64,000 nucleotides of DNA from Asparagopsis taxiformis (taxonomy: Eukaryota; Rhodophyta; Florideophyceae; Bonnemaisoniales; Bonnemaisoniaceae), in contig JALQPE010001770.1 in the NCBI GenBank assembly GCA_030407315.1, positions 1 through 64,000 of the forward strand, given 5' to 3'. Of the stretch, positions 10,081 through 48,504 are shown in pieces (the first letter of the stretch is position 1; each line of letters begins with the position of its first letter). A program made the translations under genes and the position numbers. The notes beneath the pieces are model-generated. The model saw nothing but the letters and a program-made list of their open reading frames with translations. It ran no database searches and was not told where the DNA came from.

Positions 10081-10087
10081 GACATCC

Positions 10088-10259: not shown

Positions 10260-11086
10260 TAGCCCTGCAGAGCGCGCTCTGTCAGGTCTGGGATCTGCAC
10301 CAGCAGTACAACACGATATGCGCTAGGGCCGCACGCGCCATCATGACGGTAGAAGACCTACGCGTTCGCCAAGCAGACGTTGAAGGGTCACGCCCTCTCC
10401 CTGGTAACGCGCTCGCGCGTGCCTTCCCAGGTATGGCATTCTTACACGGGCGGGGGGTCCCCGCCGCGTCACCCTCGGGTGCAGCGACTGCCCCGGCGGC
10501 CACGTCTGAGGAGACGATAACAGCCCCTCTTGGTGCGGTCACGGCCGCGCGTCCCGTTGCCAACGCTCCTACACCGTCGGCTAGGGGTGCTTCCGATGCG
10601 GTAGCGTCGGGTGGTTCTGCTCCGGCCGACCCAATGGCAGTCGAAGCTGTCAGGGCGACGACCTCGGTCGCTCCTGCCCCGACAGCAGCGGGAACTGCTA
10701 CGGCTTTGGCTGTGGTCGAACCCGCCACGAGTAAGCCGACCTCCGTGGTTGCTACCCCTACGGCGACGGGTGTTACTGGTGTCGCCACCGCTGGGGGTAC
10801 TGAAAAAGAGTCTGAGGGCATAAAGGAGGCAACTCCTAAACCCACTGACGCAACCTCCCCTGGTGGCGAGTCAGTACAAGTCGTTGAAGACCCTCGATCG
10901 CCCACGCGCGCCACGCGTCGCCTCAATGTGACGTCACCAGTGGCGACAGTCGCGGCCGCAGTGGCGGCGGCGGGGCAACGAGTCGCCCGAAGGCGTAAAA
11001 GGGCTCAGCCCTCTTCCCCTTCAGCGAGCGTGGGGTCTCCAATTAACGAGGACAGGCCGACTCGTCGGACTCGTACGCGCCGTTAG
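10260..11086 (+). pseudogene. Antisense frame of G1, 5'-truncated by transposon A
   Basis: An open frame runs on the strand opposite to pol, between the chromodomain and the missing 3' LTR. It is open across the transposon A junction, so the first residues of the longest frame (start at 10223) come from the transposon end and the true start is lost. The G1 part starts with a helix-like segment (about 60 residues, containing CQVWDLHQQYNT), followed by a long alanine/threonine/proline-rich stretch and a basic C terminus ending RRTRTRR. The basic, low-complexity C terminus resembles that of the G3 antisense protein. No known domain is recognised. The opposite-strand frame at 10282-10926 is its shadow. 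Confidence 0.5.
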
Positions 11087-13613: not shown

Positions 13614-15158
13614 TTAGATCCAACGGACGCCGTGGATCAACGATATTCTTACCTTCCGGCTGTGACTTGGCCGTTTGGAACGAGCGTGCTCTTTTTGACG
13701 TGCGGTCCGTTTCCGATGCCGAGCCACTATAGCTGGGGGAAGGTTCGCTTCCGGCTCCCAGGTATCCTCCTCGGGGGCGTACCCTAACCAGCGCACACGG
13801 AAGTAGGACATGCCATCCTCGTCTACCCATTCCTCGATAAGGTCGTCTATCGTATACTCCTTGGAGTGTTCCTCGGAGTCACCGTCGACCGGCGTCGGAC
13901 TGACCAGTTCGCTTGCGTCCTGCGTTACCCGTGGGTAATCTCCGCGTACGATTGGCGCGGGGGTGCTTCCTTGGGGATTGCGCGGGTCGGATACCGTATT
14001 CCCGGATGGCGGGACCGCCCTATCTGCCGGTAGAAGCGCTTCGGAACCCGGTTCCGTCGGTACTTCGTTCGCCCGGGGGCGACGCGGCAATCGACTTCTT
14101 GCATTAGCGGTTTCGCGGCCTTCCTCCTCACCGTCGCTACCCGGCTGCACCGGTCCATGACCCGGGGCTGTGCGTACGCAATCCGAACTAATTCTCTCGG
14201 GAATTCCGTCGACAAGTATGTCCAACGTGTGACCTTGGTTAGATATAACCGTATCCGGACCCATCGATTGGAAATCCAACTTGTTCCGGGCTCGCCCGAG
14301 TATAGTCGTCTCCTGGGAGGTATTGCGCAAGTCGATATAGACTGCGTCCCCGGCTCGGATGCGGCGATTTGGTGCTCGCACCGCCTTATCGAAGTCGCGC
14401 TTGTACCGGGCTTGCATTTTCGCAAGCGAGGAATTATCGCGCGCATACAACCCACGTAGCTGCCGGCGCCAAGACTCACGCGTCCAAGCTTCATCACCTT
14501 TGAGTGTAACATCCTCCAAGCCTATCGGCGGCGGCGCGCGCGTCAAGACCAATTCGAAGGGAATTGTATTAGTCGAGCGGTGCACGCACCGATTGTACGC
14601 GTAGGCAAGGACGGGGAGATATTCGTCCCAGTTGCGATGATCCTCAGCCACGTAATGGCGCAGCATAGACGCGAGCGTCCTGTTGAATCGTTCGACTTGA
14701 CCATTCGTCTGCGGGTGATACGTAGTAGTAGTCACCGGCTTAATACCCAAAATGACGCAGGCGTCGACGAAGGTCTTAGAACGAAACTGGGGTCCATTAT
14801 CCGACAGGATAGTCTTAGGTGCCCCATAAGTAAACACCATTCCTCCACAAAGGCTTTCACAACCAAGCTAGCTTGTATCGAGCGCATGGCCACGAGCCTG
14901 CACAGCTTAGAATAACGGTCCATGATGACCAGAACGTGTAACTTTCCTCGGGAGGTTTTCGGTAGAGGACCCATGAGGTCTATGGCGACGTCCTCAAGTG
15001 GCCTAAGGGCCGGGAACAACTTCAAGGGTTTGGTATGGCGGGACAGCTGCATCCTATCCCTGGCGCATGTTTCGCATCCGCGCACGGTGGCGTGCACATC
15101 GACGACCATGGTCGGCCAATAAAGTCCCTGTCGTAGAGTATCGTACATCCGTCTCACC
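13614..15158 (-). pseudogene. pol: G1 pol 3' part: integrase core, C-terminal domain, chromodomain (frameshifted)
   Basis: Reading from 15158 down: the CxxC half of the integrase zinc domain (CETCARDR), the first catalytic aspartate (AIDLMGPLPKT), the second (LSDNGPQF), the catalytic glutamate (TNGQVERFNR), a GPY/F-like region and a chromodomain near 13850-13690 (YTIDDLIEEW, YFRVRWLGYAPEEDTWEPE). Integrase inserts the cDNA; chromodomains of this group are known to direct insertion to marked chromatin. The frame breaks near 14839, where one G appears to be missing between FVEEW and VFTYGAP. The piece ends at the G2 LTR. Confidence 0.85.
15154..15158. other. Target site duplication of G2 (left copy)
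   Basis: TCACC precedes the left LTR of G2 and the same five bases follow the right LTR at 51215-51219. Removing G2 and one copy restores the G1 integrase frame through GHPGVRRMYD. Confidence 0.95.
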
Positions 15159-15817
15159 TGTAGTAGGTAGAAAATCCGCAAAGCGGCAAAACCACCCTAC
15201 AGGTGTCCCGAGCCTCGGTAGTGTGGTAGAGCAAGCGAATCTTGCGTCAACCGCCAATAGCGAGTATACCCCGAAAGGTCTGCCGGTAATACCGGGTGAA
15301 GGTTGGGGGGTGCTCACGCACGAAGTGCGTATTGATGGAGCGAAAGACGTAACCCGTCGAGCTGTATAGCTAAAGCTAATTCGTCCTAGAAGGATAGAAA
15401 AGAGCGATGCAAACACTGTTCAGTGGAGTCGTAAATTCCACGTGAGTTTACGTTACCTCTAAAGGTTAAGCACTCTGGCTAATCCAGAGGCATTTTATAC
15501 TAAACTAAGTTACTGTAAACAGTTAGGGTAGGTAGACAGTTAGGAATAAATATCCTTATGTGCACCAATCAGATCCCTGATTATGGCGACTGCGGGAGCC
15601 CGCGAGATCACCGACTGTTAGTGTTACAGTGTAAAGTTAGCTGAGTCAGCTTAGTTAAAATTTGCCCCTTGTGGGGTCTTTAGTTGTCCCAATGGGTCCC
15701 TCTCCCTCACTGGTCTGAGGTACAGCGAGGCTGTTTCCATTGGTTATTCCCGAACCGGGGTCGTCCAATAGGATGTCGACACGACCCCACCAGGGCAGAC
15801 CACTCCGTGGTATGACA
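15159..15817 (-). repeat. G2 3' LTR
   Basis: The 659 bases are nearly identical to 50556-51214 and start TG and end CA. It is the 3' LTR because the polypurine tract abuts it and the primer site abuts the other copy. Confidence 0.95.
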
Positions 15818-15830
15818 TCGCCCCCTCCTA
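15818..15830 (-). other. G2 polypurine tract
   Basis: On the minus strand the bases next to the LTR read AGGAGGGGGCGA. A purine run at this place primes plus-strand DNA synthesis in LTR retroelements. Confidence 0.8.
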
Positions 15831-16279: not shown

Positions 16280-16287
16280 TATATAAG
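16280..16287 (+). promoter_or_regulatory. TATA box ahead of the G2 antisense frame
   Basis: TATATAAG lies 18 bases before the first ATG (16305). A start of transcription 25-30 bases downstream would fall at or after this ATG, so the second in-frame ATG at 16338 may be the real start. Promoter activity is inferred. Confidence 0.5.
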
Positions 16288-16304
16288 GGCGGGAGATCAT
16301 CAGC

Positions 16305-16799
16305 ATGGCTGCACACGGTAACAGCCCACAAGGCAACATGCCTCCTCGTTCAACCCGGGCGTCTTCTCGCCGACCAACAACACGCCACCAGGCGTCGCGC
16401 GCGAATGCGACTCCGGCTACGCCGTCAACAAACCCTTCGGCATCTGCCGCTGAAGCTCCTGCATCATCTGCGCAGCCGCCGGCTACCGGTTCTCAAGTCC
16501 CGCCCTCTTCAGGGAATGTTCAAGCACAGGCTCCGTCGCCGTCATCCACTCGCCGTTCCACGGAACCCTCGCCGAAGGGGACGCCTCTCAAGGCCAAGTC
16601 AAGTCATCCGGCTGCGCCGTCAAGGGAAATTGTGTCTGCCAGCGGTCCTCGTCCCGAGGTAGAAGAAGTAGAAGTCCACCGGAACACTCCGCGTTCACCG
16701 CCAATCGACAAGCAGGGTTCCCCCCGTTCGCCTCGCGAGACACCGGAACCGGAGGAGATTACGGAGGCAATAGCCGATGACCCGTGCTGCAAGTCTTGA
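16305..16799 (+). CDS. Antisense frame of G2, 164 residues, low complexity
   Basis: It lies on the strand opposite to gag-pol, between the chromodomain and the 3' LTR, as in G1 and G3. The product is rich in serine, proline, alanine and threonine, with acidic stretches near the C terminus (PEVEEVEVH, EPEEITEAIADDP), and probably disordered. It is far shorter than the G3 counterpart; it may be truncated by the stop after CCKS. No known family. A TATA box precedes it. Alternative start at 16338. Confidence 0.45.
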   Translation: MAAHGNSPQGNMPPRSTRASSRRPTTRHQASRANATPATPSTNPSASAAEAPASSAQPPATGSQVPPSSGNVQAQAPSPSSTRRSTEPSPKGTPLKAKSSHPAAPSREIVSASGPRPEVEEVEVHRNTPRSPPIDKQGSPRSPRETPEPEEITEAIADDPCCKS

Positions 16800-17753: not shown

Positions 17754-18449
17754 TTATCGGCGCTTCTTAGCCGTTCGTCTTTTAGACGTTTTCTTAGCCG
17801 CTTGGCGGTTCCGCTTACGGAAGTATCGGGAGATTTGTTCGTCAGGCACGTTGTGCCGTTGCGTCCATGTGGGGTCACGGTACCCGTACCACCTTACGAG
17901 GAACCACTCCTCATTATCGTCGTCGACCACATGGTCGATCAAGTCGTCTATGGCGAATTCCTGTTCCTCAGGTGGTTCCAGGTTCTGGGAGATAGCTCCC
18001 TGTTCGGTTGGAACATCTCGACTCGACGAGCGTCGTCTTCTTCCGGTGTTAGCCGTGTCACCCGTAGGGTTAAGCGGCTCAGCCGAAGTGGCTTCTTGGG
18101 ATATTTCCATGCCGTGCTGCCGGCTTATTCCTCTTTGTCGTCGAGGGCGACTATTCTTCTTCGGGCTTGTTCCGGTTGGTTCCTTCTGGGTTGATCGGCG
18201 TAGCCGGGAGAACGTCTTGTTGGCGTCTTGGGAAGCAGGTTCCTGCATTTTGTCAAGAGTTTCATCCTCGGGGAGGTCAAATTGAGTGGACATCGGCTGT
18301 GAAGCAGCATTATCCTGACGATGAATGTCGGCCTGGGCCCCCTCCTTAAAGACGGTTCGCTCGGAACGATACTCGGTATGTCGGTTAAAGGTTCACCCCT
18401 CAACCCAAAAAGCGCAGAGCGGGATGACAAAGGCTTGGTTACAGGGTGA
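17754..18449 (-). pseudogene. pol: G2 pol 3' end: linker and chromodomain
   Basis: The clear open part is 18293-17754. It encodes a charged linker and a chromodomain with EFAIDDLIDHVVDDDNEEW, FLVRWYGY and TWTQRHNVPDEQ, ending in a lysine/arginine-rich tail. It continues G2 pol from 30886-31071 but is separated from it by transposon B. Between 18293 and the B junction the reading frame shifts at least once, so no continuous polyprotein remains. Confidence 0.75.
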
Positions 18450-18580
18450 CGTCTGTGTTTTCGGAAGTGGACGCGGACGTCCAGTCTCTCTAGTACGGGT
18501 CCTAGTCGGCCCCGAGATTTACTAGAACAAATGAACGTCCGCGTCCGAAAAAAAATAAAAATTTTTTGGATGCGGACGTC
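18450..18580. repeat. Left terminus and subterminal hairpin of B
   Basis: The terminal inverted repeat is followed by GGACGTCC motifs, by CTAGTA/TACTAG motifs and by an inverted repeat at about 18536-18581, with GTCCGCGTCC and GGATGCGGAC as arms around an A/T run. The same arrangement is at 52355-52485 in C. Confidence 0.8.
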
Positions 18581-18885
18581 CACTTTCTCTAGTACGTTCG
18601 GCGGAATACTAGGACCCGACATCCACTTTCTCTAGTACGTTCGGCGGAATACTAGGACCCGACATCCAATTTCTCTAGTACATTCAGCGGAATACTAGGA
18701 CCCGACATCCAATTTCTCTAGTACATTCAGCGGGATCCTAGGACCCGACATCCACTTTCTCTAGTACGTTCGGCGGAATACTAGGACCCGACATCCACTT
18801 TCTCTAGTACGTTTGGCGGAGTACTAGGACCCGACATCCAGTTTTTCTAGTACGTTTGGCCGGATACTAGGACCCGACATCCAGT
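18581..18885. repeat. 43-bp subterminal tandem array (B)
   Basis: About seven units start near 18581, 18624, 18667, 18710, 18753, 18796 and 18839. Each holds cttTCTCTAGTAC, an inner cggcgga and ATACTAGGACCCGACATCC; CTAGTA and TACTAG face each other as a small inverted repeat. C has four units at 52485-52660. Varying unit number is expected of such arrays. Confidence 0.9.
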
Positions 18886-19004
18886 ATACAATATATCAGC
18901 AAAAACCCGGAGGGAAGAAATTACAGCGGATGGTAAATTAAGGGCCCATATCGGACCGTATTTTATTCTCTCATTTACGAAACTGCTCGTATACAATACG
19001 TCTC

Positions 19005-19147
19005 TCTAGAATAGGAAATACATATCTGGTCAGAATAGGAAATAAATACCCGGTTAGAATAGGAAATACGTATCAAGCCAGGATACGGAATATGTATCCA
19101 GCTAGAATATGGAATACGTATCCAGCCAGAATACAAAATACCTGTCA
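19005..19147. repeat. 24-bp tandem array (B)
   Basis: About six diverged units like tagaataggaaatacgtatc lie head to tail. C has five similar units at 52783-52903. Confidence 0.85.
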
Positions 19148-19149
19148 GC

Positions 19150-20930
19150 ATACCGTCGATCACCCATCTCCCTCACTATCGCGTTCTCCCTACCATCCGA
19201 ACGCCATGCACCACCATCCGCACATACTTCAAGAACCCTCACGACCTAGATTACAAAAAATCTGCTCCTTCCCAATACCATCCCCGCTTTCCTCGACACC
19301 ACCCCAGCCCATTAAATCATCAAGACATGAAACACGAACATGGTCAGCAAAATCTTACACGACTTGAAACCCACTCTTACTTCTATCGTATGCCTGAAAA
19401 TATACACATACCAGAAACACCTCACAGCTTCATTCCCCATCTTCCTAGATCCCTTCTTCACTCTCCCTGAGTCCTGCCATTCCTGCTTCACCACTCCTGC
19501 ATCACATACACAACATCAACCCCAACAGTCAGATTCAAAAGCAACGCTTACCACGCCAGATATCTTAGAAAATCCCTTACTTACCTCTCATCCATCCTAC
19601 ACACAATACAAACCATGATCCAAAAACCTTGCAATGAATAATCAAAGTCAGCAGTCCATATCTTCGCAAAACAAGTCTTGGCGCTCAATGAAACTTACCT
19701 TCTGTCATCACCATTCCAGCATCACCTGCATAAAATCGAAATCAACCACAACAGTCGGACTCAAAACCCACATGTCCCTCTCAGCATACTCTCAAAACTT
19801 CCGCACTTTCCTTCGCTCGACACAATACGCACCATGACTGGATAAGCTTCCAATGAATAAATATCGCATTAACTGCAATAGTCAGATTCGAAACAAACAC
19901 TTCTCTCGATGCATACCCTCAGAACTCACTTACTCTCGTTTCATTCTACACACAATACATACCAAAAGTCGAAAATCTCACAACCAACAAATGAAGTCAA
20001 CATTCCGCATCTTCGCACCACCGGACTGCGCGCTAAATGCAACTTACCTTCCGTCATCACCATTCCTGCATCACCTACAAAAAATCGAAATCAACAACAA
20101 CAGTCGGACTGAAAACCCATGCTTCCCTCGCTGCATACCCTCAGAACTCACTTACCCTCGTTGTATCCTGCACACAATAGAAACCATAAGTCAAAAATTG
20201 TACAAAAAAATGTAGTCAGCATTCCATATCTTCGCGCAACTTAACTAGGCGCTCAATGTAACTTACCTTCCGTCATCACCATTCCAGAATCACCTACACA
20301 AAATCAACATCAACCACAGCAGTCAGACTCAAAACCCACATTCCACTCACTGCACCCCTCAAATGCTCACCTACCTCCTTTCCACCCTTCAGCAAATATG
20401 CACCATGACTCACTAAGCTCCCAATAAATAAATATTGCATAAAAGACGACAGTCACATTTAAAACAAACACTTCCCTCGCTTCATACCCTCAGGACGCAC
20501 TTAACCTCTTCATCTCGTTGCATCATACAAACAATACAACCAATAATTCACAAATCGTGCAACGAAAAAATGTAGTCAGCATTCCATTTCATCGCGAAAC
20601 CCGTCTTTCAGCTCAATGAAACTTACCTTACTTCATCACTATTCCTGCACCACCTATACAACATCAAAATGAACCAGAACAGTCAGACTAAAAACCCATG
20701 CATCCCTTATTGCACACCCGCGAGACTCACTTACTTACCTGCCTCCCATGGTTCACAACATGCAAACCATGACTCACGAAGCTTCTAATGAATCAATATC
20801 GCATCAACGACAACAGTACGACTCAAAACACACGCTTCCCTCGCTGCATACTCTCCAAACTGGCATACTCACCGTCGTTCTATCCTCTACACCAAACAAA
20901 GGAAACACGACCAAAGAACCTCAGCCAGTG
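19150..20930. repeat. Degenerate satellite-like block of B
   Basis: This is the same block as 1-1190 in A plus about 590 bases more at its left, with the same recurring acaacagtcagactcaaaac segments. No gene is supported. Confidence 0.7.
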
Positions 20931-21477
20931 ACGGCGGAGAAGTGGAATTCCACAGGTTAACCTGCGGCGTCGACTGGACAGCTTTCAACGTCAGCTTAAG
21001 TCCTGCTGTGCATACTCCATATCATCGCCGGTATTGAGATTAATAATGGCCCAAGCCATGGTCTCTGAACTCCCGAATGATGAGATCCGGATCGAGAACA
21101 TCGGAATGGTATAATCATATATATCACAATCCATTTGCTTCCCTTAAATGATCCCTGTAATATCCACTGTAAAGCACAAACTTATTCCATGAAGTTCGCA
21201 ATTAATATAATTTTATTATTTCAAATGAATTAATTGAAAATCCATCTCCCACGGCGGTCATTCATCCTTCCAAGCGCACGTTGCCAGCAAAATGTGTGAC
21301 CTAGCGGTGATGATTGATCGCTCAGGCACATTCCACCATTGGGCTGCCAGAAGTGAGCACAAAACTGATACCCACAAAACCACGAGAACATTACAAACGA
21401 GGTCTCGAACGCACATTTGGAGTACAATATAAATACTATACAACAAACTCTACTCGCTATCTCAGACGACGCGGCTC
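20931..21477 (+). promoter_or_regulatory. Retained transposase leader/promoter region (B copy)
   Basis: Identical to the A copy at 1191-1740, with the TATAAATA box at 21428-21435, and homologous to 54372-54935 of C. The transposase frame is absent downstream. Confidence 0.6.
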
Positions 21478-23604: not shown

Positions 23605-26226
23605 TTTCCATTTCAGATCTACTGGTTGCACTAGGCCTGAAAGTGTTTCTGGATAGGGCCGAATAACGACCTGGGCAGCACGCACTGCGTAAGATGATCT
23701 GTGTGATGCAGACTGCAAGGATTTCTATGGTGATTCTGGCTGGGGAATGTGGTAAGCTTGATTGTTGCGTGGCTTTGTATCTCCTTGCCTGCCATTTTGC
23801 TTGGATATTTACACGAGCGATCAAACCGAAGACGCCGACTCGGCACAACTACCAACTCTCCTAGCTTCGAGTCAGCGCCATCTAATTGCAACTTGTGACA
23901 CTCAAGACGAATACGTTGTGCTGATCTCTGCAATGAAAATTGAGTTAGTGCTGCAGTTCTTTTGGTCGATGCCAATATGCAGGGATACTGTTTACACCTT
24001 TTGGGAGTCAAGAAGTTCTCAGATTGCAAATCAAATCAGATCATGGTAGAATATCTGACTTTTCTCTCTTCCCTTCACCACATCTGCATCCGGAGCTGAG
24101 CCAAGCTGAGCTGGAGGGAACCCGGCCGCTGACCCCTGTCATTCTCATAAAAATCTTTAATGCAATACTATTCGTGTATGGTAATGTAAGTGCTAATGAA
24201 AATGTATACAAGTCTAGAATAAACGTTGCAGTGGTTCTTTGTAGCTATCGATACTTGCTAAAAATCTGTAGCTTTTGCTTCTCGCATGGACGAGTTGCAG
24301 TCTTTGTGTTTGTTTCATTTCTGCCACAAACGAGAGGCAATCAGGGTCTGTGTGCACATAGAGAATGATTTAATATATGCGCTCATTGCCGTCGTAGATA
24401 CTTTTAACAATGGCCAGTACGTTTCTCTCGGCCGCCGCCGGGTACGGTCGGACTGAAAGATCGGGGAGATGTGTGGAGAGTAGTGTTTGGATAGAGACGA
24501 ACGTTGTGATGGATGGAATGGTGATGATTTCATGCTGAAGCGATGGGAGATGGATGGATATGGTTGAATGAAATCTAGTATTCCGAAGGAGGCCTTTTCT
24601 CGAGGAAGAGGCATTATATTCTCACAAAGCATGTAGATACTGGTTTCCAGTTTGGTATGCTATTGTAGCTCAATTCACATCTTATCTACACGTACGTATG
24701 GAGAGAGATCCAAGTGTGCGTGGCACAAGTCCAACGGTGAAACAACGCAGTATGAAACTACCACAGATAAGGCGGCGTACAAAATCCTCGACTCAAGGCA
24801 GCTCTCAGGCTTTCGTGAGCACCGACTTCGTTCCACCAAGATGTTGCGGAAATATGTGCTGGTCTAACTTGATACGACCATTGGACAGTTTTGCTCTCTA
24901 AGCAATGAGCGAAAAATCAATGATTGCGCGTGTCGTCGGTACGGTCTTGTAATGTTGGCTCAACCAATAACATCTAACGTTGAGTTATCCACCCTCCGCC
25001 GTGTCGTGTCGTAAATTTGCACAGAAAATTTGTTTCAAATCTTTGCTCCAATTATCAGCTCAAATACGGCATTGATCTCCAGCTTCATCTGGACAGAAAC
25101 ACCGATCGCTCGATGTCTGTCTCAGATAAACCGCAGTCAAACGCCATGCGGAAAGTTTCATCGCTTCCCGTTGCGACTGAATCTGCAAACGCCACACAAA
25201 AATTTGCCCTTTCCGCGTCCGGAACGAACGCCGACTACATGTCGTCAGGTTCCTGATCGACTGGATCGATGGAGCTTGCTCTGCAGGAGAGCAGGACAGG
25301 CGGTTTGTTATGCCTGGACAATTTCCATACCGATCTCCCTTCTTGAGTGCAAAATTACGAGTCTAGAAATTGACCTGCATCGGCTGCTGTATCACATCTG
25401 TGCTAAGGATTGATGATACCCGTACCGCTGAGAAATTGCAGCTCTGGTAACGTGGGGATGATGTGCTGAACACGCAGAACGCTGATCCATAACGGGACTG
25501 CTTCATAGGCATAGTACGGAATGTATTGAGACAGCCCAAGCGAATTCAGGAGGGAGCACCAGGGCAGTGCGCGGTGACTCAGCAGATACCAGTGGTGAGT
25601 GGTCTAAATGGGGCTACACACGAGTTTGTCAATGAACAGTCTAGTTTAGTTTGGAAATGTGTCGGATGGATGGTATGTTGTAAATGTCGACAGATTTGAG
25701 GAAGCGATAGAAGCAATCAGCACCGTGTAGTTGCATCAAGGCTTTAGTGGCCATTGCTAGAGAACTTTCTCCAATGCCCTTATTGCAGGATGGGCAGAAA
25801 ACCCGGCCGGTTTCGAGATTGAAGAATTCATTGCGCAGATTGAATGAATGCAATTGACGGAGAATGCAGAAGTATACAATGGTATCGTTTTGCAGGGTGA
25901 CGTAGGGGAAACATGTTGGGCTTGTTGGAAATGCTGAGAGCGATGATGAGATCCAGTCGTTTCCGTCGTAGATGGCAGTGCTTATTTTCTGCACGGCTAG
26001 CTTGTCTGCTGGGCGACTGGGCGGTATTGGCGTACGATGAAGCGGGACTGGTGGTGTTTAAATGACATTTTTTGTTTGAAGATGGATGTATGTGTGCGAC
26101 TAGAATGTAGTAAGAGCATGAAAATGTTTATGTTTGATGGGCGTCGCATGTTGGGGGACTTTATGTCGTGTGGGGCAATAATGTATCAGGTATTTGAAGC
26201 AGACAGCAATCGCTTGAGCGCATATA
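23605..26226. other. Unique centre of the palindrome (B)
   Basis: This is the copy of 3867-6488 of A, bounded by GACGTC motifs. Apart from the frame at 25641-25994 I see no gene. Confidence 0.6.
25641..25994 (-). CDS. Hypothetical 117-residue protein in palindrome centre (B)
   Basis: The product is identical to that of 5903-6256 in A, with the same CPSC pair. Function unknown; chance frame or remnant of a captured gene are both possible. Confidence 0.25.
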   Translation of the reverse strand: MQKISTAIYDGNDWISSSLSAFPTSPTCFPYVTLQNDTIVYFCILRQLHSFNLRNEFFNLETGRVFCPSCNKGIGESSLAMATKALMQLHGADCFYRFLKSVDIYNIPSIRHISKLN

Positions 26227-29200
26227 GACGTCCGGTGAATGACCAGCGCAATTGCATTGCTGGCGAGCCCAGAAATTCTAAAATTTCAGTCAGAAAAAAA
26301 ATGCAAAAATACATCGATTTGGGCGGTCGAAAGTGCCGTACGGCACACCCCCATCTCAAAAACATGTTCACATGTGCATGTTTTTGAGAATAGCCCAAAA
26401 AATAAAGCAATTCAGGACGTCTGCCGGACATAGGCTTGATTCTAATTTGGCCACAACGGCCCCAGAAGCTACCAAGCGCCCCGAGCGGCCCCTCCCCGCT
26501 CACTTACCCACTCACGCCCATCTTGCAGAAACGTTCCTGCTGGCCTCATCCATGCCTTCACATCCACATCATAATCCTCTGCTGAGCTGTTCACCTTGGA
26601 CGCTCACTGGAAGTACTCGTCTTCGACGTCCGCCAATGCAGGACAACACCATGAATACTAAACCCACCGTGGATCTCAGTCATCAACGGTGGGCGTCCTA
26701 TAAATGACTGCTATAGAACCATTGCCCCAAGCCCTCCAGTTTGGACGCTCAGCCAACAGTGATTGCTGCTCTACCTCCTTGGTCGTTCTCCGATGCATGT
26801 AAATGCGCCAAAGTACGACCGATGGGGCAGTCCAAACTTTTTGTACCAGTGCACGCCTAGGGATACCACAAGGTTCGTCATACACACACAAAGACACAAA
26901 GACACAAACACACAAACACACAAACACACAAACACACAAACACACAAACACACAAACAACCACGCACTGCAGCACCCAACTTTCGCATGCGTCAGTGATG
27001 TGCTGCTGCAGTGTGTATGCGCTGTGCGGTAGCAAGATTTCCATGCTTGCAGCCATTCACATCCAGACATCCAGCCGCCGACCAGGGAAGCCGTTTGCAG
27101 CCGATTCTCCCTTGTCTGCATGGCATCTCGGTGCTGTCAACACTTGCTTAGTTGCTGCGATGCGAGCAAATGTGCAGCACTAGCCTAACTTGAAATGGAC
27201 GTCCAGTAGAAGTCCGGCTCGGTTACATTGCTGGTCAGCCCTGAAATTCTAAAATGTTGGGCTGAGAAATAGCTGCAAAACTGTATCCATGTGCAATACT
27301 CGACCAACCTGAAATGGACGTCCGGTGAATGTCCAGCTCAATTGCATTGCTGGCGAGCCCAGAAATTCTAAAATTTCAGTCAGAAAAAAATTGCAAAATT
27401 ATATCGATTTGGGCGGTCGAAAGTGCCGTACGGCACACCCCCATCTCAAAAACATGTTCACATGTGCATGTTTTTGAGAATAGCCCAAATTTCAATTCAA
27501 ATCAAGGTGTCTAATTTGGCCACAACGGCCCCAGGAACCGGCTGCTGCCCCGGCCGGGGCCGTCACTGGCTTCTGTAAGCACCAACTGTAAGCAAAGCCA
27601 CATCTCACGAAGGGTCGATTCCAGGCTCAGGCTCAATACGCCAGGGCGAAGTTTTGGTCCTTGTTTCGACATGCTCCCACCCCACTTTCTCACGACAAAC
27701 ACTGCTCATCCATCATGCTGCACATGCTACGTGCACTTCGTATGAGCAGTGGGCCCGCCTGCGTGGTTGCTGTAATGCGTAGATGTGAGCAGCATACGAA
27801 CAACCCAGAATGGACGTCTGGTGGATGTCCGGCTCAATTGCATTGCTGGCGAGCCCAGAAATTCTAAAATTTCGGGCAGAAAAAAATTGTGAAAAATCAT
27901 CGATTTGGGCGGGTCGATTGTGCCGTACGGCAGACCCCCATCTCAAAAACATGTTCACATGTGCATGTTTTTGAGAATAGCCCAAATTTCAATTCAAATC
28001 AAGGTGTCTAATTTGGCCACAACGGCCCCAGGAACCGGCTGCCGCCCCGACCGGGGCCGTCACTGGCTTCGGTAAGCACTAACTGTAAGCCAAAATCGCG
28101 TCTTACGAAGGGTCGATTCCAGGCTTCAAGCCCAAGTTATGCTAGGGAGACATCTTTTTCCCTGTTTCATCATGGTCCCACCTTACATCCTCACGACAAA
28201 CAACACTCACACATCACGTTACTCATATTCCGTGCACTTTGTATGAGTAGTGAGCCCGCCTGCTTAGTTGCTGCAATGCATGGATGTGGGCAGCACACGA
28301 CCAACCTGAAATGGACGTCCGGTGGATGTCCGGCTCAATTGCATTGCTGGCGAGCCCAGAAATTCTAAAATTTCGGGCAGAAAAAAATTGTGAAAAATCA
28401 TCGATTTGGGCGGGTCGATTGTGCCGTACGGCAGACCCCCATCTCAAAAACATGTTCACATGTGCATGTTTTTGAGAATAGCCCAAATTTCAATTCAAAT
28501 CAAGGTGTCTAATTTGGCCACAACGGCCCCAGGAACCGGCTGCCGCCCCGACCGGGGCCGTCACTGGCTTCGGTAAGCACTAACTGTAAGCCAAAATCGC
28601 GTCTTACGAAGGGTCGATTCCAGGCTTCAAGCCCAAGTTATGCTAGGGAGACATCTTTTTCCCTGTTTCATCATGGTCCCACCTTACATCCTCACGACAA
28701 ACAACACTCACACATCACGTTACTCATATTCCGTGCACTTTGTATGAGTAGTGAGCCCGCCTGCTTAGTTGCTGCAATGCATGGATGTGGGCAGCACACG
28801 ACCAACCTGAAATGGACGTCCGGTGGATGTCCGGCTCAATTGCATTGCTGGCGAGCCCAGAAATTCTAAAATTTCGGGCAGAAAAAAATTGTGAAAAATC
28901 ATCGATTTGGGCGGGTCGATTGTGCCGTACGGCAGACCCCCATCTCAAAAACATGTTCACATGTGCATGTTTTTGAGAATAGCCCAAATTTCAATTCAAA
29001 TCAAGGTGTCTAATTTGGCCACAACGGCCCCAGGAACCGGCTGCCGCCCCGACCGGGGTCATCACTGGCTTCTGTAAGCACCAACTGTAAGCCAAAATCG
29101 CGTCTTACGAAGGGTCGATTTCAGGCTCAACACGTCAGGGACAGGTCTTGGTCCTTGTTTCATCATGGTCCCGCCCTACTCTCTCACGATCAACCTGAAA

Positions 29201-29426
29201 TGGACGTCCGGTGGATGTCCAGCTCGATTGCATTGCTGGCCAGCCCAGAAATTCTAAAATTTCCGAAAAATCAATTTGGTGGCCCAGCATCTCCTGTGCC
29301 GAAAATTCCCGCGCTCACTTGTGATATACGTCTAGACGTGTTTCGCACTTGTACGCATCAGGGAAGGCGTCACGGAAGGTTGAGACTACGCTACTTGTGT
29401 ACCGCGTCGTCTGAAATAGCGAGTAG
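26227..29426 (-). repeat. Right palindrome arm of B, enlarged
   Basis: Inverted match to 21448-23604. Hairpins lie at 26354-26389, 27444-27479, 27941-27976, 28442-28477 and 28943-28978. It is about 900 bases longer than the arm in A because of two additional module units, offset by a shorter microsatellite (26882-26958, 77 bases). Confidence 0.85.
27620..29113. repeat. 501-bp tandem units (three hairpin modules in a row)
   Basis: The hairpins at 27941, 28442 and 28943 are exactly 501 bases apart. The second and third units are practically identical over the whole 501 bases; the left part of the first unit (about 27625-27830) is diverged. Transposon A has one unit at the matching place. The pattern indicates recent unequal exchange or replication slippage. 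Confidence 0.9.
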
Positions 29427-30712
29427 TGTTTGTTGTATAGTTGTGGAGTATGCGTCTGGTGGTTTGTAAAGCTTGCAGAACGGGATAGGGATGTGGGTGG
29501 CTCCATTTTATGAATACATGAATACAAATATTCAGGGTTGACGAAGCGGAAAGGCATACGCTCATACATGTATGAGTTTGCATAGTGGAGAAAATATTTA
29601 CATCGAAATTTACATGGAAGAGATGGAGGTTTTAAGGATGAGGTATGAGAGGAAGAAAATTCTTCTGTGGTATGAGGATGTGTTCTGTGGGGGGTGGATG
29701 GAATCTTGGGATGGGATGGTACAGGGGGAAGTGGAAATGTACGGAGTGCGGGTTTAGATTGGAGTGTGATTCGGAGAGGAGTGCCGACAAGCATATTATG
29801 GGGATTGGGGAGACGCTGCGGGGTGTTGGGGTAGTGAGGGCGGAGGAGGTGTTTAGGTGGGACCGTAGGAGGGTGCGGTTGAAGGCCCCGAGAGGAGGGG
29901 GTTTTAGGAAAGTGAGGAGAAAGAGGTGGGAAGGGGGGTGGCGTCTGTTCTGGCTGTGGTGAGTGGGGATGTGATGGGGAAGAAGAGGGTTATTGTATTT
30001 GGGGAGGGAGGGGAGTGGGAGGATGGGTGCGAAGTGGGGGGTTGATATGTGTTTCAGAGCGGGGAGGTTTCTGGGGAGACGGCGGGGGAGCGGGAGCGTG
30101 GGCCGGTGGTGGTGGTGGTGGTGTATACGGTATCGAAGATGCGGATGGCGTGGGGGCATGGAGCAGGTGAGGGAGGGAGGGGTGGAGCAGGTCGAAGAGT
30201 AAGCTGCAGGGGAAGTTTGTGGAGAGGGCGAAGGAGAGGGGTTGAAGGTAGAGGAGAGAGGGTATTGAAGAACAATACGTTGCAAAGGTGATGGGGGAGA
30301 GCATGGTCGAGGGGATAGGGGATGTTTTTCCCTATTCTGAGGTAGTATGAGGACTGGTTATAAGAAATCTGTACGGTAGAGCAGAAAAGTAGGTATGGAA
30401 TGGAGGTGTGCACCGTGGAAGCGGGGATAGGTAGCTGAAAATGCGTTCTAGAGTGGTATTGGGGGTGTTTGAGGTACAGTACGGGGGAGGTGAGCACCAA
30501 ATGGAAGGGGGTGTGAGCGAGAGGATGAAAAAATTAAAGACAAAATTGGAGTCGACCGACAAGGAAAAATAGAGTGGTCGCCGTGATGGATGCGGACATC
30601 CATGTCGAGCAAGGCGGCAGAAATTTCTGGGGTCGAAATTTTTGAATTTCTGAACCGGCGCCCGTCCTAGGTTGACATAGACATGGCGGAAGTCCATCCC
30701 GAGGGGGACATC
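29427..30712. other. G-rich block between palindrome and right end (B)
   Basis: Same as 8801-10087 in A with almost no changes (for example one G/A difference near 30543). No gene is called, for the same reasons. Confidence 0.4.
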
Positions 30713-30885
30713 CGTGGTACTAGAAACAATGAATGTCGTCCTAGTAATACTAGACGTACTAGACCGCATGGACGTCCGGATCTAGGCGGACATCCAAAAA
30801 TACTGGAGAACATGGACGTCCGCCTAGTAATACTAGGTGTACTAGAGGTTGTGGACGTCCGCGTCCATTTCCGAGAACACAGACG
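30713..30885. repeat. Right subterminal repeats and terminus of B
   Basis: CTAGTA/TACTAG and GGACGTCC motifs end in the terminus ACACAGACG. The next bases, gacatggg, belong to G2. Confidence 0.8.
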
Positions 30886-31071
30886 GACATGGGCGGATGT
30901 TCATTGGAAGAGATACGCGCTGCGGGCTTGATGCTCAACGATGTAGGACTCTTCCGCCATACTCGGCACCGTGTTGGCGGCTGGGTCAGTCGGTTTCCCA
31001 CCGCAAGGTGCGATGCTCCCGTTAGAAGTTAACCGTGAGGCGTGTTTACTGTTTCAGGTTGTGGCGCATAC
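30886..31071 (-). pseudogene. pol: G2 pol fragment between transposon B and G3
   Basis: These 186 bases continue G2 from the G3 insertion point. On the minus strand the frame of the integrase tail (NRVTY) carries on after the target duplication and soon meets a stop; another frame with AEESYIVEHQ follows. Last five bases, CATAC, are the G3 target duplication. It links the integrase C-terminal domain to the chromodomain piece at 18449. Confidence 0.7.
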
Positions 31072-31878
31072 TGTAGGACCAGCCGGGATGGCGGTCACTA
31101 AGAGAGTTCTAGAATCGCTTGCCTTGTCAGGGCGTGTTGAACCGTAACGCGCTCGTGAACTTGCGTTTCGCACGTCGCTCGGTCGCGGAGGCGATCGGGT
31201 GGTACAACGGCGGAACGCGCAGGGTCGATCGCAACACGGGATTCGCGGGCCGGCGCAAGCCGTGATCTCAGGGGGAGATCACCGAGTAAACTCGAGCTCA
31301 ACACGATCCACGCAGGGGTCGTAAATCCCTGGCCTAGCGGTAGGCGACGCAACGCGCGGTCTCGCGGTGCGACGCAATTCGACAGTCGGTAAACGCGGCG
31401 CGCGCGCACGTATGTCGGCGATCGTGAGCAATCCGCACGCAACGTGTAACGCAATCGGTCCTCGCGACGCGCTCAACGCTTAACTCGTAGCTGCGAAAGT
31501 GCTGACTGTTTATTGGTAGGGTGCGAAGCCATGCGACCACTAATAGCTAACTTACTTGGGACAGGCTGTCCTTGTGTGGCCGGCCGGCGGCGGCCGCACG
31601 CTCGCACGCAAAAAGGGAAATATTTTGGGAAAAAGACTTTCGTCATAAAAAACCCAAAAAGGGAAATAAAGGGAAATTCGCGGAAATCGCTACACGTGGC
31701 GCGGCTCGCGGTTTCGTGGCAACGTACGCGCGCACGCGCTCGCATTGACGCTCCGTGACACGTAATCAAGGCGCCACGCGTACGCTCGCTTACTAAACTA
31801 ACTCAAACGGATGCTTGCGGACTAACGTAAACGCGCGCGCTCGCATCGGTTCCATCGACCAACTTAAATTGCGCCACA
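31072..31878 (-). repeat. G3 3' LTR
   Basis: Matches 43887-44696 with about seven differences. A purine run abuts it on the inner side, so it is the 3' LTR. Confidence 0.95.
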
Positions 31879-31889
31879 CTCCCCCCGAC
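31879..31889 (-). other. G3 polypurine tract
   Basis: On the minus strand the bases beside the LTR read GGGGGGAG, a typical priming site for plus-strand synthesis. Confidence 0.8.
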
Positions 31890-32066
31890 TAACTCCACAG
31901 CGCGTCCTCGCGCGTAACGTTCTCGTGCATACCTTCAGCTCTCTTCTGTCTTCTTCTCCTCTTCCAATCTTCTGCTTCTCTTCCATCCTTCTGCTTCTCT
32001 TCCATCCTTCTGTCTCCATTCCGCGCGCGCTCGCTCCGTTAACGCTACACGCACTCGCGCTTCGTA
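31890..32066 (+). promoter_or_regulatory. Pyrimidine-rich leader of the G3 antisense gene
   Basis: The stretch 31925-32025 is a run of ctcttc/ccttctg repeats on the plus strand, directly before the antisense start codon at 32067. Pyrimidine-rich tracts near start sites occur in promoters lacking a TATA box. If the antisense transcript starts here or in the LTR, the LTR would act in both directions. This is inference. Confidence 0.3.
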
Positions 32067-35023
32067 ATGTCGCGCGATAATAACGCTCTGCCGAGTTGGC
32101 TTCGCGCCGGCGCTGCGTCTCGCGACGAACCGTCGACGCCCACGAACGCGTCTCCTCGCCCTGCGCGTATCGCGTTTCCTTCTCTTTCAAGCCCGGAGAG
32201 TCCCTATTACATGTCCATGGCGCAAGCATCCTCCTCAACCGTACCCGTAACCGCGAGCGGCCGTGGCGGCAGTGGCGTCGTTGCGTCGTCTGATGTCGTC
32301 GCCACGGTGGATGCGACCGCGACTCCAACTTCTGCGTCTGCCGCGCGTTCTGGGAGCGGCGTCCCGCTTCGTTCGGTTCCTGCGCCTGCGTCCGTTTCGC
32401 TTCCGTCGGCCGCGCAAGACGCTCCCGAGTCGATTCCGCGCGCGCGCTACGACGACCCGATCGCGTTCCGATTTATGCCACGCCCTATGCCGACGTGGGC
32501 GGAGTTGGGCCGTCGCCACTTCTTCCCGCAGCGCTTTCAATGGACGCGCATCGCTGACGTATCGCGCTATGCCGTGTTACCCGGCCACAAGGACGCGCAA
32601 GCGGTGTGGGACGCGCGGCGCGAATCGGCGTCGTGCGACTTGGCGGTCCCCGCGAACTTACCGTGCGACGCGTATTTTCTCGAGGACGAAGCCGACGAAC
32701 GACTCGTACGCCACCTGGCCCGGTTGCGCGTGATGCGTCGCGACGAATTTGCGCGAGTCGATCCATGGGCCGCGGCGCCCAGTGCGGGCTTCTTACTTGA
32801 CGGCGGCGCTCCGTGGAACGACGTTGAGCACGAAGGGGAGGCGAGCGTGCCATGGTTTCTTAACGCGGATATGCGCCCGGAAGCGCGGCGCGAGTTGCGT
32901 TTGCGGCACACGTCGGGCTACTTCGTTACGTATCGCGATATCGAATTTCGCGAGTTTCCTGATGACCGCGTCGCCGCTTTCTTCCCGCGTTACGATGCGC
33001 GCGATTGGCCGGAAGCGCCCGACTCGTTGTCGGTGCCGCTTCCCTGCGTGTTCCATACGCGCCGTCGGTACTGCTCGGGCGCGACGTTCCGGTCGAGGCT
33101 CGTTCGTATTTCTGGGCTATCGCTCTGAGCGAGTGGGTGGTGATGGTTGCCGCTGCGTGGCTTCACGTCGCTTACGTCGAGCGCCGCTTCTTGCGCTTGA
33201 ACGAGAAATTGATCGCGGGAATCGAGCGCGTCGGCGTTTCGGCGATCGTGCGGGGCGGAACGTATACGGCGGCGCATCTCGAAAGTCTCTTGACGGAGCA
33301 TCGCGCGTGCGCGTGGGACGAAACTCCGGTTTTCGACCTCGCGCCTGGTATGGACTTCAAGGAGGGCGGGCAATGGTTGCCCTGGAGCGCGGAGCGCGGC
33401 GTCGTCGACTGGGCGCATGGTTCGCTTGGCGTGCACCGGCACACTGAAATTCCACATCTCCTTCTCAAGTCGCCGCGCAATCCGTCGCGCGACGCGTTTG
33501 CGCATTTAGAGGCGCGCGATGTCGTTACCGTTGATGCCGTGTTGTCCGCGCTATCAACTAACGAACTGCACGTTATGCGCGCGACCGATTCGCGCGAGTA
33601 TGCGCAGTATCTTGGCATGGCGGCTTTGTTGGCGATCGAACGTCGGCGCTTCCGAGACGGCCGATATTCCCTTTTCTCCGAGCCACCGCGCGCTCCTATC
33701 GACGTCGAGCGACTCGACGCGGCGCTGCGCGCGGAGTACGTGAAGGTTTACAACGAGTTGCAGGCCTTGAAAGCGGCGTCTTCCGGCCACGGCGGGGCTG
33801 CGGCGTCCAGCAGTGCGGGCGACGGCGGGGCGGCGGTCAGCAGCGCGGCGAAGAGCGGCGCGGGTGACGGTGCTGCTGCGGGCAGCCGCACGGGCGCAGG
33901 CGACGCAACGGCTGATAACGTGGCGGAAAGTGACGCGGCGGCCGTTGTCAACGAGGCGGGTGATGTTTTGGCCGAATCAGACGCGAACGTGTTGCGGGAC
34001 CGGCTTGCCGCCGCCGAAAAGGGCCGGGAGGAGGCGTTGGCGCGCGTGGCGTTGCTCGAAGGGGCTCGCGACGACGCTTTGGCGCGAATGGCTTCCGCCG
34101 TGGAGGGCCGCAGCGAAGCGCTGGCGCGTCTGACATCGGTCGAGCAGAGCCGTGACGAGGCGCTGGCGCGGGTGACGACGATTGCCGAAGCGCGCGACGA
34201 CGCTGCGGCGCGCCTTACCAAAGCGAACGCAACGCGCGACGAAGCGGTGAGTCTCGTGCACGAGGCTGAAAAGACACTTAAGGACGCGGCTGGACGCGAG
34301 GCGACGTTAGAGCGCAAGGCCGGGGAAGATGCGACGCGGATCGAGCGGATGCACAAGGACATCGGCGACTTGCAAGAACGCGTGGCGAATTACGAACGGG
34401 CTGCCAGCGGCAATCGCGCGATGATCACGACCCTCCAAGAACGTTGCGAGGCTGCTACTTCGGCGCAGGAACGGGCGGAACGCGCGCTTAGCGATGTCGA
34501 AGCGAATCTCGCGGGCGAACGTCAACGGGGCGCGGAGCGTGTTGCGGCGGTGCGTCGGGTGTATACTGCGCGTGAACGGGAGACCGTTCGTAGGATCCAG
34601 GATACGATCGAACGCACGCATCGCCTCGGCACGACGCTGAATGATATCGTTGGCTTAGTGCAGCGGTCGCCCGAAACGTCCGCGGCGGGGGTGGTGTCTA
34701 ACAGCGAGACGCAGTCGGTCAGCGGTCTTAACGAGGGAGCGGAAGGGGGAGGTGATGCATCGGTCGCGGTGGGAAGCGACGGGGCTGGTCGCGGAGGTGC
34801 GCGTCCAACGACTCGCACTCGCGCGGCGGCCGCAGCGGCTGCACGTCCCAGCGTTCCTCCTTTGCGTCTTGGCGTGCAAGACGGGCGCGTCGTGCGCGTG
34901 CTGAATTCCGAGCGACGACGCAATCACCAAGCAGACACGGCTTCAAGTCGTGCTCGCGCGCGCGGCGCAACGGGCAGTTCTTCGAGCCGACGCACGCGCC
35001 GCGAGGATAACGCACGTGAGTGA
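32067..35023 (+). pseudogene. Antisense gene of G3: long coiled-coil protein, one frameshift
   Basis: Two overlapping plus-strand frames (32067-33128 and 33005-35023) together make about 980 codons; the shift lies at about 33040-33125. The first part has a serine/alanine-rich N terminus, then a globular-looking region rich in tryptophan and aromatic residues (MPTWAELGRRHFFPQRFQW). The second begins with a hydrophobic stretch (WVVMVAAAWLHVAYV) and a globular region. From about 34023 to 34650 come 14-residue repeats of the type RDEALARVTTIAEA and a long coiled coil. The C terminus is basic (RRTRREDN). It lies opposite to gag-pol, between chromodomain and LTR. No known family is recognised. One frameshift suggests this copy is broken. 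Confidence 0.65.
34023..34250 (+). repeat. 42-bp coding repeats in the G3 antisense gene
   Basis: Five to six units of 42 bases encode 14-residue repeats: residues R-x-EALAR at the start and a small hydrophobic spacer after. Fourteen residues equal two heptads, so repeat number can change without breaking a coiled coil. Confidence 0.75.
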
Positions 35024-48490: not shown

Positions 48491-48504
48491 CTCACTCCCC
48501 CCGG

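What the first reader, a model, noticed from the sequence alone, without database searches (positions are those of the whole stretch)
10260..35023. Every gypsy element here carries an antisense gene between chromodomain and 3' LTR
G1 (10260-11086), G2 (16305-16799) and G3 (32067-35023) all have an open frame on the strand opposite to gag-pol at the same place. The sequences differ a lot, but G1 and G3 share a low-complexity then basic C-terminal layout (RRTRTRR and RRTRREDN). Additional antisense frames at this place are known in a few plant gypsy elements such as Grande and RIRE2; finding them in three different elements of one nest suggests a lineage-wide extra gene whose role (silencing control, particle protein, regulator of sense transcription) is open.
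Basis: partly seen in the sequence, partly recalled or inferred. Interest (0 to 1): 0.85.

Follow-up and report, generated by a model that had tools for sequence, protein, structure and literature searches.

The report
Conserved backward gene in fungal retrotransposons
Several related families of jumping genes in this genome, probably a mushroom-type fungus, carry an extra, selectively maintained gene written on the opposite strand near their 3' end; such backward genes are known from some plant elements and one mould element, but this protein family matches nothing in the family libraries searched and its job is unknown.

Summary
The frames are at the stated place and strand, and the suggested lineage-wide gene is supported, but two of the three window frames are fragments. 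G1 (10275-11086) is a C-terminal stub cut by a DNA transposon. G2 (16305-16799) is an N-terminal stub of a deletion variant. G3 (32067-35023) is one gene split by a frameshift. Elsewhere in the 141-Mb genome the gene is intact: 985 aa (G3 family), at least 892 (G1) and at least 1070 (a fourth family, G4). Ten of 30 G3 copies examined are fully open. dN/dS is 0.15 (median) within G3 and 0.09-0.17 between G3-type subfamilies; random placement of one pair's substitutions gives 0.80. Where pol and gene matches share a contig, the gene lies downstream on the opposite strand in 16 of 16 G3 and 21 of 21 G2 cases; 14 G1 elements show constant spacing. The proteins share a layout: low-complexity N-terminus, conserved domain, coiled coil, Arg-rich tail. 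G1 and G3 proteins are clearly homologous; G2/G4 are distant relatives. Not every gypsy family has it. Antisense accessory genes are known in plant Retand/Grande and Botrytis Boty (brtn), so this is a new variant of a known kind. A trans-acting nuclear regulator is the favoured, untested role.

The parts
10275..11086 (+). G1 antisense gene, C-terminal remnant (upstream part cut off by a Plavaka-type DNA transposon); Arg-rich C-terminus
   Evidence: frame 10223-11086; transposon terminal repeat, by eye; 40 listed copies incl. the window, 96-100% identical; longer intact gene in another copy
13614..15158 (-). G1 pol C-terminus: integrase end and chromodomain
   Evidence: Chromo 8.5e-09, rve 1.4e-05 in ORF 13614-14840
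51222..52304 (-). G1 pol, RNase H to integrase H2C2, on the other side of the G2 insertion
   Evidence: ORF 51141-52304
15159..15824 (-). G2 3' LTR (limits of the repeat match; the true end is a few bases inside)
   Evidence: 99.55% to 50556-51221; 5-bp TSD TCACC read from flanks
16280..16290 (+). TATA-box-like sequence 25 nt upstream of the G2 antisense ATG, present in the 3 G2 copies read
16305..16799 (+). G2 antisense gene, N-terminal remnant (164 aa) of an internal-deletion variant
44762..50442 (-). G2 gag (49291-50442, part) and pol (44762-48490)
   Evidence: gag by similarity to G3 gag
50556..51221 (-). G2 5' LTR (limits of the repeat match)
31072..31878 (-). G3 3' LTR, TSD CATAC
32067..35023 (+). 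G3 antisense gene (985 aa in open copies); in this copy split by a frameshift into 32067-33128 and 33005-35023
36951..41229 (-). G3 pol (two frames in this copy), chromodomain at its end
41274..43310 (-). G3 gag, 678 aa (no Pfam match; similar to G2 gag)
43887..44697 (-). G3 5' LTR (limits of the repeat match)

Best explanation
The frames are remnants (G1, G2) and a frameshifted copy (G3) of one real accessory gene carried, antisense, in the pol-to-3' LTR interval by one clade of chromodomain gypsy elements. SHOWN: it is a protein-coding gene kept by purifying selection on its protein (measured in G3-type genes), found at constant place and strand, and very divergent between families. SHOWN FROM SEQUENCE: the product is about 900-1100 aa, with a low-complexity N-terminus, a conserved domain of roughly 350-450 aa, a coiled coil and an Arg-rich C-terminus; no transmembrane-like or signal-like segment was found. 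INFERRED: it is transcribed from its own promoter between the gene and the 3' LTR (TATA-like box in G2; pyrimidine-rich leader in the G3-type genes; neither tested). INFERRED: the protein enters the nucleus, oligomerises through the coiled coil, binds nucleic acid or chromatin through the basic tail, and acts in trans to regulate expression, silencing or integration of the family. A G2 deletion variant that lost most of the gene still multiplied, which fits a product supplied in trans.
For: Selection: 10 of 30 G3 copies examined are fully open over 985 codons; variable sites by codon position 124/105/287. Nine distinct open sequences give 36 pairs with median dN/dS 0.153 (0.047-0.282); random placement of the 122 L018-L024 substitutions gives median 0.80 (0.55-1.17), with a stop in 181 of 200 replicates, against 0.162 observed. 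Between G3-type subfamilies dN/dS is 0.087-0.166 over 921-940 codons in 14 pairs (dS above 1, so approximate). Place and strand: 16 of 16 G3 and 21 of 21 G2 pol matches that share a contig with a listed gene match have it downstream and opposite; G1 14 elements at 6.9-7.5 kb, opposite. A G1 copy with both LTRs (1274 bp, 98.7%) holds the gene between pol and the 3' LTR. Abundance (stop-to-stop frames; recounted): stop-free frames of at least 890 residues, match spanning at least 390, in 22 of 104 listed matches (G1 query); at least 1100 in 45 of 92 (G4 query); at least 980 in 43 of 97 (G3-type query). Homology: G1-G3 2e-18 over 326 aa; G1/G3 profile against G2/G4 profile P = 0.0012, 0 of 100 column shuffles as high. 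Layout: AlphaFold helix 637-854, pLDDT mostly 70-89; heptad and tail composition of five proteins; no strongly hydrophobic 19-residue window (highest mean 1.76).
Against: No RNA or protein evidence exists here. The conserved domain has no detectable relative in Pfam, NCBIfam or the PDB by sequence (only weak sub-cut-off matches, such as Peptidase_C31 0.06 and SMC coiled-coil models), and both structure models of it are poor (mean pLDDT 41 and 38), so nuclear or nucleic-acid function rests on composition only. No NLS-like pattern matched in 3 of 5 proteins. A TATA-like box was found only in G2. The 1548-aa family, close to G1, multiplied without the gene, so it is not essential to all elements of the clade. 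Twenty of 30 G3 copies differ from the open reference by a stop, an indel or a diverged end. The database homologs that could be placed are from this genome or very near relatives, so breadth across fungi is untested.
Confidence: 0.65

Rival explanations
1. Chance or compositional open frames in GC-rich DNA opposite the 3' region of the elements; no gene.
For: The window G2 frame alone is not beyond chance (47 of 500 shuffles), G1 only marginally (2 of 500). GC is 54-63%. Twenty of 30 G3 copies carry a stop, an indel or a diverged end.
Against: dN/dS 0.15 against a neutral-placement value of 0.80, third-position excess, subfamilies at 66-83% amino-acid identity with dS above 1 and still open, homology between families.
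Confidence: 0.02
2. A real gene whose main effect is through antisense RNA (interference or dsRNA with gag-pol RNA), the protein being secondary.
For: Antisense position; the plant review (passages of PMC7264820 read) considers a dsRNA role possible alongside a protein role.
Against: An RNA role does not predict amino-acid level constraint. The gene lies beyond the pol frames, so overlap with the sense RNA is only in the pol-3' LTR interval. Not excluded as an added effect.
Confidence: 0.12
3. A structural or particle protein, or an envelope-like protein, expressed from the opposite strand.
For: Long coiled coil and disordered ends occur in structural proteins. The slot is where env-like genes sit in other elements.
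Against: No transmembrane-like or signal-like segment; no similarity to the gags of G2 and G3, although these two gags are similar to each other (5e-19); env-like additional ORFs are described as sense genes (background of PMC11963269).
Confidence: 0.15
4. A captured host gene or a nested element repeatedly picked up by the same slot, rather than an old gene of the lineage.
For: The same slot holds other things elsewhere: Rrp5-like domains in one 1548-family copy; a DNA-methylase-like frame near a C71-family element (not shown to be inside it).
Against: Protein relatedness follows RT relatedness: G2-G4 close in both, G1-G3 intermediate, across more distant. Place and strand are constant. No low-copy host relative stood out among the listed matches, though lists are truncated.
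Confidence: 0.08
5. An anti-silencing factor: the protein counters host RNAi or chromatin silencing of the family (a special case of the nuclear trans-acting role).
For: Fast divergence with retained constraint, trans-supply suggested by the amplified G2 deletion variant, carriage by chromodomain elements. All are indirect.
Against: No functional evidence; conserved domain unidentified. Strong purifying selection does not favour an arms race in the core domain, though the linker and coil evolve faster (aa identity 0.25-0.63 against 0.79-0.86).
Confidence: 0.2

Closest known systems
Antisense additional ORFs (aORF-3R) of plant gypsy elements: Grande gene23, RIRE2, Retand ORF4/TRP28
   Same: Antisense gene between pol and 3' LTR, present in most copies of a lineage, function unknown, nuclear role suspected (PMC7264820 passages; PMC11963269 abstract, background and discussion)
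   Different: Retand elements are non-chromoviruses and their antisense proteins carry the TRP28 (pfam04195) domain; the proteins here have no such match and the elements carry a chromodomain
Boty-like elements of Botrytis cinerea with antisense gene brtn (Zhao et al. 2011, Virology 417:248)
   Same: Fungal element with a chromodomain and an extra antisense gene (title as cited in PMC8365987, PMC7264820 and PMC4227169; domain list in PMC4227169; passages)
   Different: An ascomycete; I saw only the title and citations and had no brtn sequence, so homology is untested
HTLV-1 HBZ / HTLV-2 APH-2
   Same: Antisense genes of retroviruses giving nuclear proteins (background of PMC11963269); that HBZ is a bZIP, i.e. 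coiled coil plus basic region, is recalled
   Different: Analogy only; no homology tested; by recall HBZ is a far smaller protein
'add. ORF' of gypsy elements in Novikova et al. 2010 (PMC2864245, Fig. 3 legend)
   Same: Additional ORF of unknown function in some full-length elements from fungi or a spikemoss (passages and section 5)
   Different: Orientation not stated in the text (0 uses of 'antisense'); figure not held, so which elements carry it is unknown to me
PvRetro13 ORF2 (plant, SMC domain, per PMC7264820)
   Same: Antisense protein with SMC-type similarity; the G3 protein has a weak SMC match (TIGR02168 1.3e-05, 23 bits against a cut-off of 567)
   Different: The match here lies in the coiled coil only; not evidence of membership

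Membership tests
Chromodomain-bearing Ty3/gypsy LTR retrotransposon (chromovirus) | RT, RNase H, integrase and chromodomain at the integrase C-terminus | tested here: met
   G3 and G1; G2 has RT/RH/INT, its chromodomain-like stretch near 17840-17960 was read by eye only
Chromodomain-bearing Ty3/gypsy LTR retrotransposon (chromovirus) | Paired LTRs TG..CA with 5-bp TSD and a primer-binding site | tested here: met
   G3 TSD CATAC, G2 TSD TCACC (read); LTR pair in a G1 copy, whose TSD did not match by eye in the printed flanks; the same primer-site-like sequence next to the 5' LTR in G1, G2 and G3
Antisense aORF-3R genes as a functional class | Frame antisense to gag-pol between pol and 3' LTR in most copies of a lineage | tested here: met
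   'most copies' judged only on capped lists
Antisense aORF-3R genes as a functional class | Transcribed from its own promoter | not testable with these tools
   no RNA data; TATA-like box in G2 only
Antisense aORF-3R genes as a functional class | Nuclear product | not testable with these tools
   only Arg-rich tails and scattered basic motifs
Retand lineage with TRP28 | TRP28 domain (pfam04195) in the antisense protein | tested here: not met
   no match at E<=0.1 in G1, G1b, G4 and G2-type proteins or at E<=1 in the four window frames
Retand lineage with TRP28 | Non-chromovirus element | tested here: not met
   chromodomains present in G1 and G3
Boty brtn | Sequence homology of the antisense protein | not tested
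   brtn sequence not available to me
Envelope-like gene | Signal peptide and transmembrane segment | tested here: not met
   highest 19-residue Kyte-Doolittle mean 1.76 over five proteins; N-terminal windows at most 0.41; a simple hydropathy scan, not a dedicated predictor
Duplicated gag | Similarity to gag of the same elements | tested here: not met
   best BLASTP E 0.33, profile E-values 0.39-0.57 (G2 and G3 gags only)

The most novel reading that the evidence does not exclude
The pol-to-3' LTR interval of gypsy elements in this fungus is a general accessory-gene bay. One clade holds an old, fast-evolving antisense gene for a trans-acting coiled-coil chromatin protein that helps the family evade host silencing, while neighbouring lineages have filled the same bay with other chromatin- or nucleic-acid-related genes (DNA-methylase-like, Rrp5 fragment). 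Fungal chromoviruses would thus run a retrovirus-like accessory-gene programme from the opposite strand.
Probability: 0.15. Interest if true: 0.85.

Novelty: new variant of a known kind. Interest (0 to 1): 0.6.

Why it matters
LTR elements are usually described as gag-pol only. A third, antisense gene under strong purifying selection (dN/dS about 0.15 in G3-type genes) and with dozens of long open copies per family in one genome shows that gag-pol is not the whole selected unit in these fungi, and that annotation looking only at the sense strand would miss it. Because several divergent, intact versions coexist in one genome with a related family lacking the gene and with a deletion variant that still spread, the open question of what such antisense genes do can be tested by comparing families within one organism.

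Tried and rejected
Chance frames: rejected for G3, kept open only for the isolated window G2 frame. Gag origin: rejected against the G2 and G3 gags. Env-like: no membrane-like segments. TRP28: no match. Weak, sub-cut-off family matches (Peptidase_C31 0.06, TMCO5, Taxilin; SMC models; two PDB chains at E 0.3 and 0.5, none) were set aside. Direct structure: AlphaFold2 on 7-row alignments gave mean pLDDT 41 (whole G3 protein; only the coiled coil confident) and 38 (domain), so no fold search was run. Database searches: the search for homologous proteins three times returned six proteins, P0005-P0007 and P0013-P0015. The best matches in this genome are 99% for P0007 and 97% for P0015; P0005 and P0013 are 97% and 99% identical to the queries over part of their length; P0006 (58%) and P0014 (71%) were compared only with the queries. 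They tell little about other fungi. Viral-contig scan: none. Organism: not identified; 'fungus, probably basidiomycete' is inferred from a Plavaka transposase and recall of its distribution. L066 was fetched and not used.

Dropped rows and limits: family lists are capped at 40-150 scored matches, so absence on a contig is not informative. In one search, 23 of 39 G3 and 18 of 39 G2 pol matches (window excluded) had no listed gene match within 20 kb on the contig; 3 of the 16 G3 rows also show a second listed gene copy on the same strand 8.7-9.0 kb away, from an inverted neighbour (C828 twice, C2634). In one search, 49 of the 104 G1 matches were entered; 16 gene-RT pairs lay within 20 kb: 14 at 6.9-7.5 kb opposite, one at 11.0 kb opposite (second gene copy on C61), one at 18.9 kb on the same strand (C2027, not the same element). 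In the same call G2 gave no pair and G3 two same-strand pairs with other RTs; the G2 and G3 RTs were not among the RTs listed. Families C71 and C100 were examined only to 5.8 and 5.5 kb beyond RT, too short to exclude the gene. G3 copies: 30 of 40 listed were used, the window copy included; near-identical copies on neighbouring contig numbers (such as L028/L029, L016/L017, L020/L021) may be one insertion assembled twice. L027 is counted among the 20 non-reference copies because its match stops short. dN/dS at dS above 1 is approximate. Early profile comparisons of G2 with G3 were weak (P 0.084 and 0.086) and became P 0.0012 with more sequences.
Full report
WHAT WAS CHECKED. The window is part of contig C1648 of a 141-Mb, 3156-contig genome. 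It holds three gypsy elements on the minus strand, nested. G1 is oldest, with its integrase interrupted by G2. G2 has LTRs 15159-15824 and 50556-51221, 99.55% identical; G3 has LTRs 31072-31879 and 43887-44697, 99.1% identical. G2 in turn is interrupted by a copy of a Plavaka-type DNA transposon and by G3 (order of events read from the repeats and the domains). Reading the flanks printed, G3 has a 5-bp target duplication CATAC and G2 TCACC, with LTRs starting TG and ending CA. Domains on the minus strand confirm RT, RNase H, integrase and, for G1 and G3, chromodomain.

THE THREE FRAMES. One search lists plus-strand frames 10223-11086, 16305-16799, and two overlapping frames 32067-33128 and 33005-35023. 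Against 500 dinucleotide-preserving shuffles of each pol-to-3' region, the G3 frame is never matched; the G1 ATG frame is matched 2 times (5 stop-to-stop) and the G2 ATG frame 47 times (107 stop-to-stop). So only G3 stands by itself; the case for G1 and G2 rests on other copies.

OTHER COPIES OF G3. A DNA search gave 40 scored matches of 511 candidates; 30, the window copy included, were used. Ten are open over the full 985 codons; the other 20 differ from an open copy by a stop, an indel or a diverged end (one of them, L032, only by an in-frame 3-base indel, and is still open); the window copy has one frameshift. Variable sites by codon position are 124, 105 and 287. Nine distinct open sequences give 36 pairs with median dN 0.012, dS 0.067, dN/dS 0.153 (0.047-0.282). 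Dropping the 122 L018-L024 substitutions at random places of the same base gives dN/dS 0.80 (0.55-1.17) and a stop in 181 of 200 replicates; observed 0.162. Searching the genome with a database relative (P0007) revealed further subfamilies around 98, 87, 80 and 76% identity; 43 of 97 listed matches have stop-free frames of at least 980 residues (counted). Four of these were fetched; between them and two window-family copies, 14 inter-subfamily pairs give dN/dS 0.087-0.166 at dS 1.2-1.8 (the fifteenth pair, within the window family, gives 0.218). The conserved part is alignment codons about 150-600 (identity 0.79-0.86 in the three pairs shown); the linker and coil evolve faster (0.25-0.63).

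OTHER COPIES OF G1 AND G2. The G1 stub matches 40 listed copies (window included) at 96-100%. In C1917 the gene is open for 892 codons from one ATG and further upstream in frame, inside an element with 1274-bp LTRs (98.7% identical) at 3731-5004 and 17798-19071 of that contig. The window stub is its last 270 or so residues. A diverged G1 subfamily (C740; 37% amino-acid identity over 822 aligned codons) is open for 855 codons. The G2 stub continues much further in another copy (795 aa open in L042; a database relative P0013 shows a coiled coil and basic tail at the end); the second copy fetched, L041, is broken. Ten of the 40 G2 matches, the window included, match over the whole 581-base query; the other 30 only to about base 481. 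In 5 of the former the gene sits 4.18 kb from pol instead of 6.3 kb. The window G2 therefore belongs to a deletion variant that multiplied after losing most of the gene.

A FOURTH FAMILY. Database protein P0015 led to a fourth family (G4) with 92 scored matches of 993 candidates, 45 of them with stop-free frames of at least 1100 residues (counted); one fetched copy encodes 1070 aa, another (L046) has lost an internal part. Two G4 RTs lie 5.86 kb away on the opposite strand (C1601, C2196; from the coordinates).

PLACE AND STRAND. G3: all 16 pol matches sharing a contig (within 20 kb) with a listed gene copy have one downstream on the opposite strand, 15 at 5.0-5.8 kb and one at 17.9 kb; three also have a second gene copy on the same strand 8.7-9.0 kb away. 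G2: 21 of 21 opposite, 15 at 6.3 kb, 5 at 4.18 kb, one at 16.9 kb. G1: 14 elements at 6.9-7.5 kb, opposite. The same primer-site-like sequence follows the 5' LTR in G1, G2 and G3.

NOT EVERY FAMILY. Five antisense proteins searched against eight downstream stretches hit only the G4 copy. The 1548-aa family, whose RT is 88% identical to G1, lacks the gene in the three copies examined; one of these has a stretch with Rrp5-like domains between shared flanks. The 1214-aa and 1241-aa families (one copy each) show none between about 2 and 7 kb beyond RT. In an eight-sequence RT tree G2+G4 and G3+(G1+1548) stand together apart from 1214/1241 and C71 (local supports 0.90-1.00), so one gain and a loss in the 1548 line is the simplest reading; with eight sequences this is provisional.

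ONE PROTEIN FAMILY. G3 and G1 proteins align over 326 residues at 28% (2e-18). G2 against G3 is marginal by BLASTP (0.019) and G1 against G2 not significant (0.17). A seven-sequence G1/G3 profile against a five-sequence G2/G4 profile gives score 39.7, P 0.0012, over 76 collinear columns; the best of 100 column shuffles scores 24.2. All five proteins examined have 14-17 Arg/Lys and 0-6 acidic residues in their last 60, and a heptad-rich segment by a crude score; AlphaFold2 gives one long helix at 637-854 of G3. No family library names the conserved part and both models of it are poor.

HOW IT MAY WORK. Selection acts on the protein, so a protein function is close to certain for the G3 type. Opposite orientation separates it from gag-pol translation and implies its own transcript. 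G2 copies have a TATA-like box 25 nt upstream of the first ATG (three of three read) and G3-type genes a pyrimidine-rich leader; both are suggestive only, and no such box was seen in G1, G3 or G4. Coiled coil plus Arg-rich tail without membrane segments points to an oligomeric nucleic-acid or chromatin protein. The amplified G2 deletion variant fits supply in trans. Whether it regulates transcription, opposes silencing or assists the integration complex cannot be decided here.

WHAT IS KNOWN. Antisense genes in this slot are described in plants (PMC7264820, passages; PMC11963269, abstract, background and discussion) and, for fungi, brtn in Botrytis Boty elements (Zhao et al. 2011, title and citations only). 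Novikova et al. 2010 mention additional ORFs in some elements without stating orientation. A 2011 survey of LTR elements in fungi (PMC3248453) uses the word antisense nowhere in its main text (word search only). In eight full-text searches of the held library I saw in the listings no report of this gene in basidiomycete gypsy elements; subscription papers are mostly not held. Hence: new variant of a known kind.

Noticed in passing
L063:2078-3499 (minus), about 4.4-5.8 kb beyond the RT of a C71-family element: Frame opposite to RT with a DNA methylase domain (N6_N4_Mtase, 1.1e-11) and a Cys-rich PHD-like tail (by eye); whether it lies inside the element is unknown.
   Followed up: partly
L062:1415-2788 (minus, C100 family) and L043:2737-4089 (plus, 1214-aa family): Two frames of 457 and 450 aa near gypsy pol genes share a motif LxTGxxCxRQxPHxDF that looks dioxygenase-like by eye; no Pfam match.
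   Followed up: no
L045:1257-3086: One copy of the 1548-aa family carries Rrp5-like domains (OB_RRP5_4th 7.2e-08; S1 matches below cut-off) between flanks shared with two other copies that have unrelated sequence there: a possible captured host-gene fragment.
   Followed up: partly
window 2-10259 and 19739-30885; 52355-61125: Two near-identical copies (99.9% over 7.2 kb) and a diverged third copy of a large DNA transposon with arrays of about 500-bp units; a Plavaka transposase frame is at 54939-57977.
   Followed up: no
window 58055-60340 (minus): 761-aa frame beside the Plavaka transposase with weak sub-cut-off matches only.
   Followed up: no
genome contigs C828, C2634: Two G3-type antisense genes lie close together in inverted orientation, suggesting inverted neighbouring element copies.
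   Followed up: no
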